A DNA stretch of 64,000 bases from Albibacterium bauzanense. Its GTDB lineage: Bacteria; Bacteroidota; Bacteroidia; Sphingobacteriales; Sphingobacteriaceae. Made by a program: the position numbers and the translations under genes. A model generated the notes under the pieces. That model ran no database searches, was not told where the DNA came from, and saw only the letters and a list, made by a program, of their open reading frames with translations. Of the stretch, positions 9,371 through 44,798 are shown piece by piece (position 1 is the stretch's first letter; every line of letters begins with the position of its first letter). The stretch covers positions 558,001 to 622,000 of the forward strand of contig NZ_SMGO01000002.1 of NCBI RefSeq assembly GCF_004339765.1. Direction: 5' to 3'.

Positions 9371-9456
9371 CAAACAAGGACCAAACAGGGTTTAAACAGG
9401 GACCAAACAGGGGCAAAACAGTCATTTTTTCCCTGTTTGATCCTTGTTTGGTCCTT
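9371..9456. repeat. Clustered CAAACAGGG / CAAACAAGG direct and inverted repeats
   Basis: Within the 300-base gap 9218-9517. Several copies of a 9- to 11-base unit (ACCAAACAGGG, TTAAACAGGG, ACCAAACAGGG) are followed by inverted copies (CCCTGTTTGATCC, TTGTTTGGTCC). The arms GGACCAAACAGGG (9400-9412) and CCCTGTTTGATCC (9431-9443) pair with one mismatch. It sits after the end of the efflux operon, so it may act as its terminator; it may also be a dispersed intergenic repeat. The rest of the gap shows nothing. Confidence 0.7.
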
Positions 9457-41514: not shown

Positions 41515-41687
41515 TATTACAAAAATCGCTATCAATTACCTCTTAAAAAAGGTTGGATCTTCGTCTAAACTGGTCAAATCATCTGATTAAAAATTATTGA
41601 CATAGAGATGATTTTTTATTAACCAATTAAAGCGGCTTATGTACTTTTTCTTGTTTTCAGAAAAAATTATAAAAAATATTTTGCACT

Positions 41688-41703
41688 TACGAATAGTTTC
41701 GTA
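41688..41703 (+). promoter_or_regulatory. Operator 1 of the BlaI-like repressor
   Basis: TACGAA-TAGT-TTCGTA, 6-bp arms around 4 bases, 43 bases before the blaI-like start. Confidence 0.6.
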
Positions 41704-41711
41704 CATTAGTA

Positions 41712-41727
41712 TACGAATTGATTCGTA
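41712..41727 (+). promoter_or_regulatory. Operator 2 of the BlaI-like repressor
   Basis: TACGAAT-TG-ATTCGTA is a perfect palindrome sharing its arms with operator 1, centre-to-centre distance 24 bp. Two equal sites just before a BlaI/MecI-type gene are the classical autoregulation layout. Confidence 0.65.
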
Positions 41728-41746
41728 CATATGAATGACATAAATA

Positions 41747-42121
41747 ATGATTGAGAAAAAACCCACTGAAAGTGAAATGGAGATTCTTCAAATATTATGG
41801 AGGATGGGATCTTGTACTGTTCGGAGTGTACATGAGGAATTGATAAAAAATAAGGAATCTGGATATACTACGACATTAAAGTTAATGCAGATTATGCACG
41901 AAAAAGGCTTAGTAGACCGAGATACTTCCAGTAAATCCCATGTATATAGTGCGATGATCAATCAAGATAAAATAGAAAAGCAATTGGTTGGAAAAATGAT
42001 TGATGATATTTTTAGTGGATCAGCATCTCGCTTGGTAATGCAAGCTTTAGGGAATCAGCAAGCCAGCGAACAAGAGATTGAGGAAATTAAAAGGTATTTA
42101 GATAGTTTAAAATTGAAATAA
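41747..42121 (+). CDS. BlaI/MecI/CopY family transcriptional repressor
   Basis: A 124-residue winged-helix repressor. The N-terminus KPTESEMEILQILWRMGSCT is the family signature, followed by the recognition helix region TTTLKLMQIMHEKGLVDRD and a C-terminal dimerisation helix bundle. In the BlaI/MecI systems the repressor is cleaved after signalling by the membrane protease encoded next door. Two palindromes precede the gene, and the BlaR-like gene follows after one base. Confidence 0.93.
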   Translation: MIEKKPTESEMEILQILWRMGSCTVRSVHEELIKNKESGYTTTLKLMQIMHEKGLVDRDTSSKSHVYSAMINQDKIEKQLVGKMIDDIFSGSASRLVMQALGNQQASEQEIEEIKRYLDSLKLK

Positions 42122-42122
42122 G

Positions 42123-43817
42123 ATGGAAGAGTTTGTTGTAAAATTTAGCTCCGCTCTTGGATGGAGTATATTGCATTCTTTATGGTTTGGCTTTATTATT
42201 TATATATTAATTCTTTGTTTGTTTTATGTTTTTCCAAAAATGAGCGCTTCAGCGAAGAGTCACTTTTCTCTCCTAGGTTCTTTTGCTTTGTTTTTCTTTT
42301 TTATAACAATATTTCTGAAAGGTTTTCTTACAATGAATGCCGAAATAGCGATGCAGCTATTAGAAAACCCTTTACAGTATCCTTCTGCTCTTGTAAACAC
42401 TGTTGAAAGCCATCTTTTCATTGAGCCTTATTTTCCCATTATTGTAAGCGTGTATATCATTGGAATACTGATAGAAGGAATAAAGTTGGTAAGAAGCTAT
42501 TTCAAATTGAACAAAATAAAATCTAAAGGTCTTTCATCTGTTCCACATGCCTGGCAGTTACTATTTGATGATTTAATAATAAAGATGGGAGTAAAAAGGA
42601 AAGTAAATTTTCAAATCTCATCTTTGGTAGAAGTGCCCATGATGATCGGATATTTAAAGCCCTTTGTATTTTTTCCCATTGCCGCGGTCAATAGGTTAGA
42701 TATGCAGCAAGTGGAGGCGATATTGATTCATGAATTGACGCATATTAAGCGCAACGATTATTTACTCAATTTCTTAAAAGTTTTCATTGAAACTATTCTT
42801 TTTTTCAATCCGTTTATTTGGCTTTTGGGAAACTTGATCGAAAAAGGAAGAGAATATGCTTGTGATGATTCCGTTATCAAATTAAATGTTCAACCCAGAA
42901 TATATGCTGAAGCTCTTTTGCACCTCGAACAATTAAGAAAGAAGGGCCATCATCCTTTGGGAATGGCAGCATTTTATACTAAATCTGATTTATTAAATAG
43001 AATTAAACGTATAATAACCATGAAAACAAATTATGTAAACCGCAAACAAAAATTGGTAGCGCTGTCTGTAGGGATTATCGGTATAGCAGCTATTGCTTGG
43101 ACACAACCCACCGCACAGTCTTCCAAAAATCAAATAAAAATAACTGGATCAACGTATTCACCAAACTCTCTTAATACAGTTCTTCATCCTAACGCAAAAC
43201 CTTCTTCTGTCAAAGTTGATTTTATAGCAAAAGTATCCAATATGGATGCGACCAAGAAAATGGAGAAACGAGATACTCTATGGAGCAGTTTACAAGATTC
43301 TACTGCAACATATTTTCAATCACCGGAATGGAAATCTAAAATTGCCGGGATAGAGAAAAATGCTCAAGGCCTATCTGAAACCGCTAAAGAATTGGCCGCT
43401 CAATTTAATTCTGAAGAGTGGCAATCACAAGTAAAAGCGCAAGTTGAAGCAGGGAAATTATTATCAAAAGAGTGGGAAGAGAAGTTACAATCACCTGAGT
43501 GGAAAGCAAAGATAGCCGACATAAACAATGCAGCTAAGATTTCTGAGAAAATGGCTAAAGAGTTCGCTGAAAAATTTAACTCTGAAGAATGGCAATCACA
43601 AATAAAAGTACAAGTTGAAGCGGCTCAATTATTATCAAAAGAATGGGAAGAGAAGTTACAGTCGCCTGAGTGGGAAGCAAAGATAGCCGACATAAAAAAT
43701 GCAGCTGATATGTATGAAAAAATGACCAAAGAATTCGTTGAAAAATTTAACTCTCTAGAATGGCAGGATAAAATAAAAACACCGGTTGAAGAAGGGCAAA
43801 GCAATAAAAGAAATTAA
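42123..43817 (+). CDS. BlaR1-like M56 metallopeptidase with tandem-repeat sensor region
   Basis: A 564-residue membrane protein. The first ~330 residues match the M56 (BlaR1/MecR1) protease: three membrane helices, the zinc motif HELTH (about 203-207), the third ligand region KGREYACDDSVI, and a fourth helix (LVALSVGIIGIAAIAWTQ). Classical BlaR1 then has a penicillin-binding sensor; here it is replaced by about 2.75 copies of a 57-residue charged helical repeat (residues 400-556) beginning SPEWxxKIA and containing SEEWQSQ and SKEWEEKLQ. The signal is therefore not beta-lactam by the usual route. It probably cleaves the upstream repressor. Confidence 0.88.
   Translation: MEEFVVKFSSALGWSILHSLWFGFIIYILILCLFYVFPKMSASAKSHFSLLGSFALFFFFITIFLKGFLTMNAEIAMQLLENPLQYPSALVNTVESHLFIEPYFPIIVSVYIIGILIEGIKLVRSYFKLNKIKSKGLSSVPHAWQLLFDDLIIKMGVKRKVNFQISSLVEVPMMIGYLKPFVFFPIAAVNRLDMQQVEAILIHELTHIKRNDYLLNFLKVFIETILFFNPFIWLLGNLIEKGREYACDDSVIKLNVQPRIYAEALLHLEQLRKKGHHPLGMAAFYTKSDLLNRIKRIITMKTNYVNRKQKLVALSVGIIGIAAIAWTQPTAQSSKNQIKITGSTYSPNSLNTVLHPNAKPSSVKVDFIAKVSNMDATKKMEKRDTLWSSLQDSTATYFQSPEWKSKIAGIEKNAQGLSETAKELAAQFNSEEWQSQVKAQVEAGKLLSKEWEEKLQSPEWKAKIADINNAAKISEKMAKEFAEKFNSEEWQSQIKVQVEAAQLLSKEWEEKLQSPEWEAKIADIKNAADMYEKMTKEFVEKFNSLEWQDKIKTPVEEGQSNKRN
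43320..43790 (+). repeat. 171-bp in-frame tandem repeat inside the BlaR-like gene
   Basis: Copies begin at 43320, 43491 and 43662 (exactly 171 bases apart); the third is incomplete. Each encodes a 57-residue unit starting SPEW and ending SKEWEEKLQ. The second and third copies are more alike than the first. Confidence 0.9.
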
Positions 43818-43901: not shown

Positions 43902-44798
43902 ATGAAACGTATCCTTTTCAATTTGATTGTTATTTTCGGAATGTGGACACAAGGTGTCTATGGTCAAGATATTTTAAAAAGTGGTTACTTGGTTGCCACT
44001 GGCGATGATAAAGTATTTATTATCGATCCCAATAAATCCAATGAGAATCACACTGAAGTAATCTGGCAATGGAATGCCGCGGAGGCTACCGATATACCTG
44101 CAGAATATAAGAACTATCTTAAAAGTCTGGATGAATGTAAACCAGTTTTAAACAATACTAAGATATTAGTTTGCTCATCATCTGGCGCTACGCTATTAAT
44201 CGATATTGCTACTAAGAAAGTCGATTTTTATGCTAAAACACCCATGGCTCATTCAGCAGATCTTCTGCCGGGAAACCGGATTGCTGTTGCCAATTCTACA
44301 CATAAAGAGGGTAATAGTTTAGAACTCTATGAGATCGGCAAATCAGAACATAGATTGTTTTCTGATACGTTATACTCAGGACATGGGGTTGTTTGGGATG
44401 GGGAGCGAGAAAGGCTGTTCGTTTTGGGCTACAAACTCCTAAAGGCATATTCTCTGGAAAACTGGAATAGCAACTCGCCGGGCCTTAAACTTGAAAAATC
44501 ATGGATTATTCCAGATGAGGGAGGGCATGATCTTTCAATGGTCAACGGAAACCATCTATTGGTCAGCACACATCGCAATATCTTCAATTTTGATATCGAA
44601 GAAGAACAATTCACCGAATTTGCACCCTTAAAAGGACGTGAAAATTTAAAATCAGTGAACTATAATCCAGAAAGGGAGAACATTATATATACCATTGCTG
44701 AAGAAAGCTGGTGGACAAAAAATATCTATCAAACCAACCCCAAGAAAACAATCAGTCTTCCAGACGTTCATTTATATAAAGTTCGTGTCGCCAAATAG
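43902..44798 (+). CDS. Secreted DUF6528-like beta-propeller protein
   Basis: A 298-residue protein with a signal peptide (MKRILFNLIVIFGMWTQGVY, cleaved near GQ). The repeated blades contain GYLVATGDDKVFIIDPNK, ILVCSSSGATLLIDIATKK and GHDLSMVNGNHLLVSTH. I match it by recall to the DUF6528 family of putative propellers in Bacteroidota, often near polysaccharide-related genes. It follows the BlaR-like gene by 84 bases, so it could be part of that regulon, but no shared palindrome was seen before it. Function unknown. Confidence 0.72.
   Translation: MKRILFNLIVIFGMWTQGVYGQDILKSGYLVATGDDKVFIIDPNKSNENHTEVIWQWNAAEATDIPAEYKNYLKSLDECKPVLNNTKILVCSSSGATLLIDIATKKVDFYAKTPMAHSADLLPGNRIAVANSTHKEGNSLELYEIGKSEHRLFSDTLYSGHGVVWDGERERLFVLGYKLLKAYSLENWNSNSPGLKLEKSWIIPDEGGHDLSMVNGNHLLVSTHRNIFNFDIEEEQFTEFAPLKGRENLKSVNYNPERENIIYTIAEESWWTKNIYQTNPKKTISLPDVHLYKVRVAK

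What the first reader, a model, noticed from the sequence alone, without database searches (positions are those of the whole stretch)
42123..43817. BlaR-like protease whose sensor is a 57-residue tandem repeat
Seen: M56 protease with HELTH, a fourth membrane helix, then 171-bp repeats (about 2.75 copies) encoding SPEW/SEEWQSQ/SKEWEEKLQ helices, at the extracytoplasmic position where BlaR1 has its penicillin-binding domain. Known: M56 proteins signal to BlaI repressors by proteolysis. Inference: this is a signalling pair with a different input, perhaps envelope or protein-binding through the Trp-rich helical repeats. The near-exact repeat spacing suggests copy number may vary between strains.
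Basis: partly seen in the sequence, partly recalled or inferred. Interest (0 to 1): 0.55.

Follow-up and report, generated by a model that had tools for sequence, protein, structure and literature searches.

The report
BlaR-like protease with helical-repeat tail
A bacterial membrane protease related to the penicillin sensor BlaR1, paired with its repressor, carries at the place of the penicillin sensor a fast-changing row of repeated helices, and many related bacteria carry the same pair behind the same DNA switch, so it looks like a widespread signalling system whose signal is still unknown.

Summary
ORF 42123-43817 is an M56 (BlaR1-type) protease one base behind a BlaI-type repressor (41747-42121), with in-frame 171-bp repeats after the last membrane helix and no penicillin-binding domain. 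It is not a peculiarity of this genome: 156 of 251 family genomes have a close match, and 112 of 117 relatives read have at least two palindromes TACGAAnnnnTTCGTA, mostly 24-25 bp apart, before the repressor gene. The tail is a re-amplifying helical array: 81 of 117 have tandem repeats, 80 of 81 in frame, mostly units of 20 or 23 residues; the window's 57-residue unit is probably two helices. The tail diverges faster than the protease, and its length differs by whole units between some close species. Reading: a BlaI/BlaR-type circuit with an outer helical array in place of the beta-lactam sensor. Function is inferred. In the window's genome the only operators found outside genes are its own; in one related genus (4 of 4 genomes) a further site precedes dapF, and in two other genomes a class C beta-lactamase-like gene, hinting at the cell envelope. 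The signal is unknown. A new variant of a known kind.

The parts
41677..41683 (+). probable -10 box (TATTTTG; Bacteroidota type TAnnTTTG, consensus recalled) of the blaI-M56 operon
   Evidence: Read; in relatives TTTG starts 8 nt (73) or 9 nt (20) before the first operator, of 116 loci with an operator. Promoter inferred, not measured.
41688..41703 (+). operator 1, TACGAATAGTTTCGTA
   Evidence: two or more such sites in 112 of 117 loci, window included
41712..41727 (+). operator 2, TACGAATTGATTCGTA, 24 bp downstream of operator 1
   Evidence: spacing 24 in 89 and 25 in 18 of 116 neighbouring-site spacings
41747..42121 (+). BlaI/MecI-type repressor (Penicillinase_R), 124 aa
   Evidence: PF03965 E 3.7e-27; phmmer to MecI 1sd6 5.9e-10 and BlaI 1sd4 4.5e-9
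42123..43817 (+). M56 (BlaR1-type) membrane metalloprotease, 564 aa, starting 1 nt after the blaI stop codon
   Evidence: PF05569 3.2e-35; family profile hits BlaR1 8exs 3e-18; the window protein alone finds no PDB chain at E 0.001
42177..42491 (+). membrane helices 1-3 (residues about 19-37, 47-65, 105-123) with the presumed outer loop between 2 and 3
   Evidence: hydropathy; loop 70-103 has no K/R
42729..42743 (+). HELTH zinc motif, residues 203-207
   Evidence: aligned with BlaR1 HExxH
42852..42866 (+). ExxxD motif E244-D248, counterpart of BlaR1 E242xxxD
   Evidence: E244 and D248 invariant in 35 sequences; alignment
43053..43109 (+). last membrane helix, residues about 311-329
43320..43799 (+). 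helical repeat array, residues 400-559: partial unit 43320-43409, full units 43410-43580 and 43581-43751, partial unit 43752-43799

Best explanation
A BlaI/BlaR1-type one-operon signalling circuit in which the outer penicillin-binding sensor is replaced by an array of amphipathic helices. BlaI sits on two operators at the start of its own promoter and holds the operon down. The M56 protein lies in the inner membrane with its zinc site inside and the helical tail in the periplasm. A change in the envelope, felt through the tail (binding of a partner or ligand, or a change in how the tails of a dimer pack), switches the protease so that it removes BlaI and the operon rises. In some relatives further envelope genes appear to have come under the same operator. 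Shown here: the parts, their conservation, the paired operator, the in-frame turnover of the repeat and its heptad pattern. Inferred: membrane side, BlaI binding to the operator, proteolysis of BlaI, the tail as input, an envelope signal.
For: Pair and protease; a BlaI-like ORF ending within 200 nt upstream in 113 of 117. Operator: at least two sites in 112 of 117 loci; at the M56 locus in 17 of 17 family genomes with a strong match (E < 1e-30), of 37 genomes searched. Tail: TRF repeats in 81 of 117, period a multiple of three in 80 of 81; heptad power in the window's five repeat helices 3.8 against a shuffled mean of 1.0, none of 5000 shuffles as high, though the helices are copies of each other; unit identity within a protein above that between genera in 42 of 44. 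The repeat tail was found only at M56 loci: 12 of 14 matches in 60 genomes, the other two carrying in-frame stops. Envelope link: one operator 47-48 nt before the dapF start codon, divergent from a degP-like gene, in 4 of 4 genomes of genus g5; 30 nt before a PF00144 gene in 2 of 29 genomes of g14, one of which (G176) was read and has a 20-residue-unit array (L120).
Against: No second target in the window's own genome: the four other exact 14-base sites and the five further one-mismatch 16-base sites all lie in coding sequence, and the reversed control has more hits (23 against 10). Over 37 family genomes the 15 exact sites away from the M56 locus do not exceed the control (23), so the envelope link rests on a few lineages, and the two g5 proteins read (L018, L019) have no TRF repeat. 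36 of 117 keep a tail without TRF repeat, nearly all with the operator, so the circuit does not need the array. Charge at the last membrane helix does not settle the side (N-flank above C-flank in 66 of 117) and hydropathy shows four, not three, peaks before HExxH in 96 of 117. Models: tail alone pLDDT 64.6 (other four models 50-54), pTM 0.23; full length failed, pLDDT 39.
Confidence: 0.55

Rival explanations
1. The tail is a tether or spacer (to cell wall, outer membrane or a partner) and not the sensor; the signal enters elsewhere, for instance as a cell-wall fragment that binds BlaI in the cytoplasm, as reported for Bacillus licheniformis.
For: The tail diverges much faster than the core (tail identity below core identity in 389 of 400 same-genus pairs sampled) and 36 of 117 lack a TRF repeat, as expected of a spacer. 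A peptidoglycan dipeptide that destabilises BlaI-DNA is described in PMC3305447 (abstract and outline seen). dapF carries the operator in genus g5.
Against: The helix pattern and heptads are kept while the sequence changes, which asks more than a mere spacer needs; no call tests fragment binding by these BlaI proteins.
Confidence: 0.25
2. The protease itself is the output: BlaI only keeps its level steady, and the M56 enzyme cuts other membrane or cytoplasmic proteins.
For: In the window's genome and in most relatives searched the operator outside genes occurs only at the operon itself.
Against: Weaker operators could be missed by a strict pattern; a few lineages have further sites before envelope genes. 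No substrate is known.
Confidence: 0.2
3. A beta-lactam response after all, with a separate penicillin-binding protein as sensor that touches the tail.
For: Two g14 genomes have the operator before a class C beta-lactamase-like gene (PF00144 1.6e-46 and 6.6e-46; one of them scanned with NCBIfam: class C profile 112.8 bits, far below its cut-off of 415). PMC9834060 notes that the M. tuberculosis BlaR1 homologue also lacks the sensor domain (passage). A K[TS]G tripeptide occurs in 18 of 117 tails, by itself meaningless.
Against: No transpeptidase or beta-lactamase domain in 35 proteins scanned; no operator before such a gene in the window's genome; the same protein also matches the AmpH carboxypeptidase profile (99.6 bits, cut-off 266).
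Confidence: 0.08
4. The tail is cytoplasmic.
For: The charge test at the last membrane helix is weak (66 of 117), and an extra hydrophobic peak before HExxH in 96 of 117 leaves the helix count open.
Against: The homologous BlaR1 structure has four membrane helices, a re-entrant loop and the C-terminal domain outside (PMC9834060 passages), and the extra peak may be that loop; loop 70-103 has no K/R and the flank after helix 3 has four; 13 of 117 tails carry proline-rich stretches as in periplasm-spanning proteins (comparison recalled).
Confidence: 0.04

Closest known systems
BlaR1/MecR1 with BlaI/MecI (Staphylococcus, Bacillus; MEROPS M56)
   Same: M56 profile with HExxH, ExxxD, the Asp nine residues on and the Tyr; membrane helices before and after the protease; BlaI-type repressor beside it; paired palindromes before the repressor gene.
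   Different: No class D beta-lactamase-like sensor; helical repeat tail instead; operator TACGAAnnnnTTCGTA; the residues aligned with the BlaI cut Asn101-Phe102 are Gln-Ala in 103 of 113 BlaI proteins (3 not located); no beta-lactamase target found in this genome.
BlaR homologue of Mycobacterium tuberculosis
   Same: M56 protease without an equivalent penicillin sensor (PMC9834060, passage).
   Different: That passage speaks of a missing sensor domain and says nothing of a repeat array; not compared by sequence here.
Two other M56 proteins of the same genome (L002, L003), with TonB-like and plug-like tails (labels by eye)
   Same: M56 domain with a C-terminal tail.
   Different: Weak M56 match only (47 bits each); no SPEW repeats seen.
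CopY/TcrY copper repressors
   Same: BlaI gives a sub-cut-off hit to TIGR02698 (46.5 bits, cut-off 122).
   Different: No CxC in the last 60 residues in any of 113.

Membership tests
Peptidase M56 (BlaR1 peptidase) | Pfam M56 profile above cut-off with HExxH and downstream ExxxD | tested here: met
   122.2 bits against cut-off 31; H203, E204, H207, D212, E244, D248 invariant in 35 sequences
BlaR1/MecR1 beta-lactam sensor | C-terminal penicillin-binding (class D beta-lactamase-like) sensor domain | tested here: not met
   none in the window protein or in 35 proteins scanned; NCBIfam blaR1_generic 105.3 bits against cut-off 400
BlaR1/MecR1 beta-lactam sensor | gene beside a BlaI/MecI repressor, self-regulated operon | tested here: met
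   PF03965 gene ends 1 nt before; paired palindromes before it; binding and regulation themselves not tested
BlaR1/MecR1 beta-lactam sensor | four membrane helices, protease inside, last domain outside | tested here: inconclusive
   loop charges agree, charge at the last helix does not decide, extra hydrophobic peak in 96 of 117; full-length model failed
BlaR1/MecR1 beta-lactam sensor | controls a beta-lactamase or PBP2a gene | tested here: not met
   in the window's genome operator-like sites outside the operon lie only in coding sequence; in 2 of 29 g14 genomes a site precedes a class C-like gene
BlaI/MecI repressor | Penicillinase_R domain | tested here: met
   95.4 bits against cut-off 22.6
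BlaI/MecI repressor | Asn-Phe cleavage site for BlaR1 | tested here: not met
   Gln-Ala at the aligned place in 103 of 113 (alignment of the window's BlaI); site from PMC9834060 passage
BlaI/MecI repressor | binds the operator and is cut by the M56 partner | not testable with these tools
   needs experiment
CopY copper repressor | C-terminal CxC copper motifs (recalled) | tested here: not met
   0 of 113

The most novel reading that the evidence does not exclude
A widespread branch of BlaR-type receptors reads the physical state of the envelope (for instance the gap between membrane and wall, or tension on a tail bound at its far end) through a helical array whose length is tuned by gain and loss of whole helices: a proteolytic 'ruler' in place of a ligand pocket.
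Probability: 0.1. Interest if true: 0.8.

Novelty: new variant of a known kind. Interest (0 to 1): 0.5.

Why it matters
BlaR1 is the model for signalling by direct cleavage of a repressor across a membrane, but its chemistry is tied to beta-lactams. Here many members of one bacterial family keep the protease, the repressor and a near-invariant paired operator and have a re-amplifying helical array in place of the sensor. That makes it testable how M56 proteases are switched without a covalent ligand, and the operon's own promoter is a ready reporter for finding the signal.

Tried and rejected
Rejected: a chance or artefact repeat (84% not 100% identical, in frame, third-position bias, relatives with their own repeats). 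The repeat as a domain of other proteins: a clean SPEW tail (L014) against 60 genomes gave 14 matches in 10 genomes, 12 at M56 loci and 2 in G044 with 6-7 in-frame stops. Pfam at E 0.01 in 35 proteins: M56 in 35, the related M48 in 32, DUF4298 in 6, the others in 1-2 each, which I read as scatter in biased sequence. The PDB hits of the tail part are designed proteins; the window tail alone has one hit at E 0.25. CopY-type copper control (no CxC). An operon with conserved downstream genes: a RecN-like gene follows in 5 of 15 relatives, otherwise neighbours differ (the names RecN, BamD, CoaBC, FabI, FtsZ, DegP are recognised by eye, from no call). TonB-dependent OMP genes as targets: four g14 genomes have a site at such a gene (two of the four proteins scanned with Pfam), but in three the site lies in the coding start and spells a shared TKLFV, so a protein motif may explain it. 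Four of the seven single sites in g17 lie inside an ftsZ-like gene. dapF as a general target: of 30 dapF loci fetched 25 could be read; outside g5 the best site had 1 mismatch in G020 (no match at E 1e-25) and 3-5 in the others. Fold search was not run because the models were too poor; a covariance model of the operator was not built because the motif is nearly invariant.

Limits of the counts: the 117 proteins are L004-L021 and L089-L188, one per genome, 116 from the family and one (L016) from another, picked from the better matches, not at random. L166 was dropped (no intact ORF with the motif found) and L151 (uncertain start) was left out of the pair comparisons. HExxH in 117 of 117 holds by construction. 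In one search W/F at position 4 and a polar residue after it were required by the search pattern. The operator pattern allowed A or T at two inner positions. Pairs are not independent. Seven of the 81 TRF arrays have short periods (18-33 bp). Literature searches that showed nothing on such a tail; of these I saw listings only, several capped (15 of 568, 12 of 53, 15 of 43), and passages of the papers opened. In PMC12724326, PMC7254926 and PMC3035210 the hits for 'blai' were author names or references.

Full report
What is there. ORF 42123-43817 encodes a 564-residue M56 protease (PF05569, E 3.2e-35) one base behind a 124-residue BlaI/MecI-type repressor (41747-42121, PF03965, E 3.7e-27). The zinc motif HELTH (203-207), Asp212, the pair Glu244/Asp248 and Tyr261 match the residues named for BlaR1 (H201ExxH, E242xxxD, Asp210, Tyr261; PMC9834060, passages); all but Tyr261 are invariant, and Tyr261 nearly so, in an alignment of 35 proteins. 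At E 0.01 a profile of that alignment finds in the PDB BlaR1 (8exs, 3e-18; 8exp) and a few designed proteins; its extension into the BlaR1 sensor is weak and I do not count it. The window protein alone finds no PDB chain at E 0.001. No penicillin-binding domain is found in the window protein or in the 35.

The tail. Behind the last membrane helix (about 311-329) the model of the tail alone shows some 40 residues of low confidence, one helix (373-398) and then the repeat array, residues 400-559. The two full units (43410-43580, 43581-43751) are 57 residues each; the repeat finder sees the same period as 43378-43548 / 43549-43719 at 84% identity, TRF gives period 171 with score 553. Between the copies the differences fall 5, 5 and 17 on codon positions 1, 2 and 3 (9 synonymous and 13 changed codons). 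The AF2 model (one sequence, best mean pLDDT 64.6, the other four 50-54, pTM 0.23) has seven helices, six of 25-30 residues, broken by two residues at each SPEW or NS-EW. On that model one 57-residue unit is two helices, 27 + 30 residues. Hydrophobic residues keep a heptad spacing (power 3.8 against 1.0 in shuffles, 0 of 5000 as high, the helices being copies of one another). How the helices pack is not known. The full-length model, made with only one further sequence, failed (pLDDT 39).

Relatives. In 60 related genomes 25 have a match at E 0.001; in 251 genomes of the family 156 have one at E 1e-25. I read one protein from each of 117 genomes. TRF finds a tandem repeat in the tail of 81 of 117, with a period that is a multiple of three in 80 of 81. 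Periods of 60/120/180 bp (31 proteins) and 69/138/207 bp (33 proteins) dominate, i.e. units of 20 or 23 residues; 171 occurs only in the window. In 44 proteins with three or more 23-residue units (243 units) the profile is S-P-E-W-K..I..I...A..I...F-N with hydrophobic positions 4, 8, 11, 15, 18, 22 (position 4 was fixed by the search pattern); units of one protein resemble each other more than units of other genera in 42 of 44. The simplest reading is that arrays are re-amplified within lineages. Tail lengths run from 177 to 388 residues. Among 16 pairs with at least 95% core identity 6 have equal tails and none differs by a multiple of 20 or 23; among 70 pairs at 90-95%, 12 are equal and 14 differ by a multiple of 20. 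Tail identity is below core identity in 389 of 400 same-genus pairs. On the other side, 36 of 117 have no TRF repeat, and those read by eye in g5 and g8 have proline-rich or other helical tails. The array is therefore the common, not the only, form. A clean SPEW tail used as query in 60 genomes finds M56 loci (12 of 14 matches) and two places with in-frame stops.

The switch. Before blaI stand two palindromes, TACGAATAGTTTCGTA (41688-41703) and TACGAATTGATTCGTA (41712-41727). Of 117 loci 112 have at least two such sites, 4 have one and 1 none; of 116 spacings between neighbouring sites 89 are 24 bp, 18 are 25 bp and 9 are 27-31 bp. TTTG, the end of the presumed -10 box, starts 8 or 9 nt before the first site in 93 of 116. 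BlaI bound there would cover the start of transcription (inference). In 37 family genomes searched with the exact pattern, all 17 with a strong match (E < 1e-30) have it at that locus, 33 of 48 sites. The remaining 15 do not exceed the reversed control (23); 9 lie inside genes and 6 do not. In the window's genome the other exact and one-mismatch sites all lie in coding sequence, so there the circuit appears to control only itself, as far as this strict pattern can tell.

Further targets in some lineages. In genus g5 all 4 genomes have exactly one site outside the operon, 47-48 nt before the start codon of dapF (TIGR00652, 192.8 bits, over its cut-off), in the gap to a divergent degP-like gene. 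A divergent degP-like gene was seen at 24 of 25 dapF loci read, but the exact site only in g5. In 29 genomes of g14, 25 have the paired site; 8 exact sites elsewhere were looked at (a ninth, in G301, was not), against 36 in the control. Seven of the 8 lie at or within 80 nt of a gene start and one 250 nt off; among them are a PF00144 beta-lactamase-family gene in two genomes and a putative esterase in one. In 28 genomes of g17, 11 have the paired site; of 7 single sites four are in an ftsZ-like gene. These cases are few and related by descent; they suggest, no more, that the circuit belongs to cell-wall and envelope upkeep. That a cell-wall dipeptide can loosen BlaI from DNA is reported for B. 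licheniformis (PMC3305447, abstract), which would fit dapF, but nothing here tests it.

How it most likely works. By homology the protease faces the cytoplasm and the tail the periplasm. The uncharged loop 70-103 and the basic flank after helix 3 agree; the charges around the last helix do not decide (66 of 117), and 96 of 117 show one hydrophobic peak more before HExxH than the three helices assigned, perhaps the re-entrant loop named for BlaR1. In BlaR1 the sensor sits on the outer face, the receptor is a domain-swapped dimer and the repressor is cut directly (PMC9834060, passages). I propose the same with a helical array as the outer part. One step must differ in detail: the residues aligned with the BlaI cut site Asn-Phe are Gln-Ala in 103 of 113 repressors, so the cut is either at another place or of another specificity.

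Membership. It is an M56 protease with a BlaI-type partner. It is not a BlaR1/MecR1 beta-lactam sensor: the sensor domain and, in this genome, a beta-lactamase target were looked for and not found. It may still work like one.

Novelty. Searches of the open library (listings, some capped) showed no description of this tail or operator; most subscription papers are outside that library. A BlaI-type regulator and an M56 metallopeptidase gene are named in tables on P. gingivalis (PMC10470040, passages). I rate it a new variant of a known kind. The host is a Bacteroidota bacterium, perhaps of the Sphingobacteriales; names are withheld, so this is inference.

Noticed in passing
L207, L086, L194, L205 (genus g5 genomes), dapF-degP gap: A single BlaI-type operator stands 47-48 nt before dapF in 4 of 4 genomes of one genus, though the divergent gene order without the site is common in the family.
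   Followed up: yes
L244:1505-1520 and L245:1493-1508: The operator stands 30 nt before a class C beta-lactamase/AmpH-like gene in two genomes of g14.
   Followed up: partly
L243, L246, L247 (g14): The same palindrome lies in the first codons of genes that look like outer membrane receptor genes, spelling TKLFV; a similar gene (L248) has it 79 nt upstream instead.
   Followed up: partly
L041, L043, L047: In these three relatives the pair sits in a run that looks like BamD, omega-like, CoaBC, DUF4835-like, [BlaI, M56], RecN (names by eye), perhaps an old location; the window has other neighbours.
   Followed up: partly
L047 (G015): Two M56 genes stand in tandem behind one BlaI gene, the first with a 23-residue SPEW array and the second without.
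   Followed up: no
G044 (L260, L266): Weak matches to the repeat tail in a distant genome run through 6-7 in-frame TGA codons.
   Followed up: no
contig ends of several g14 assemblies, e.g. L098, L105, L118: The locus lies about 5 kb from a contig end in several assemblies, as if a long repeat were near.
   Followed up: no
window 9371-9421: Short tandem array of an 11-base unit (CAAACAGGGAC), 4.6 copies.
   Followed up: no
window 43902-44798: A DUF6528 gene follows the M56 gene after 84 nt; no similar gene was seen near the M56 genes of the 15 relatives compared.
   Followed up: partly
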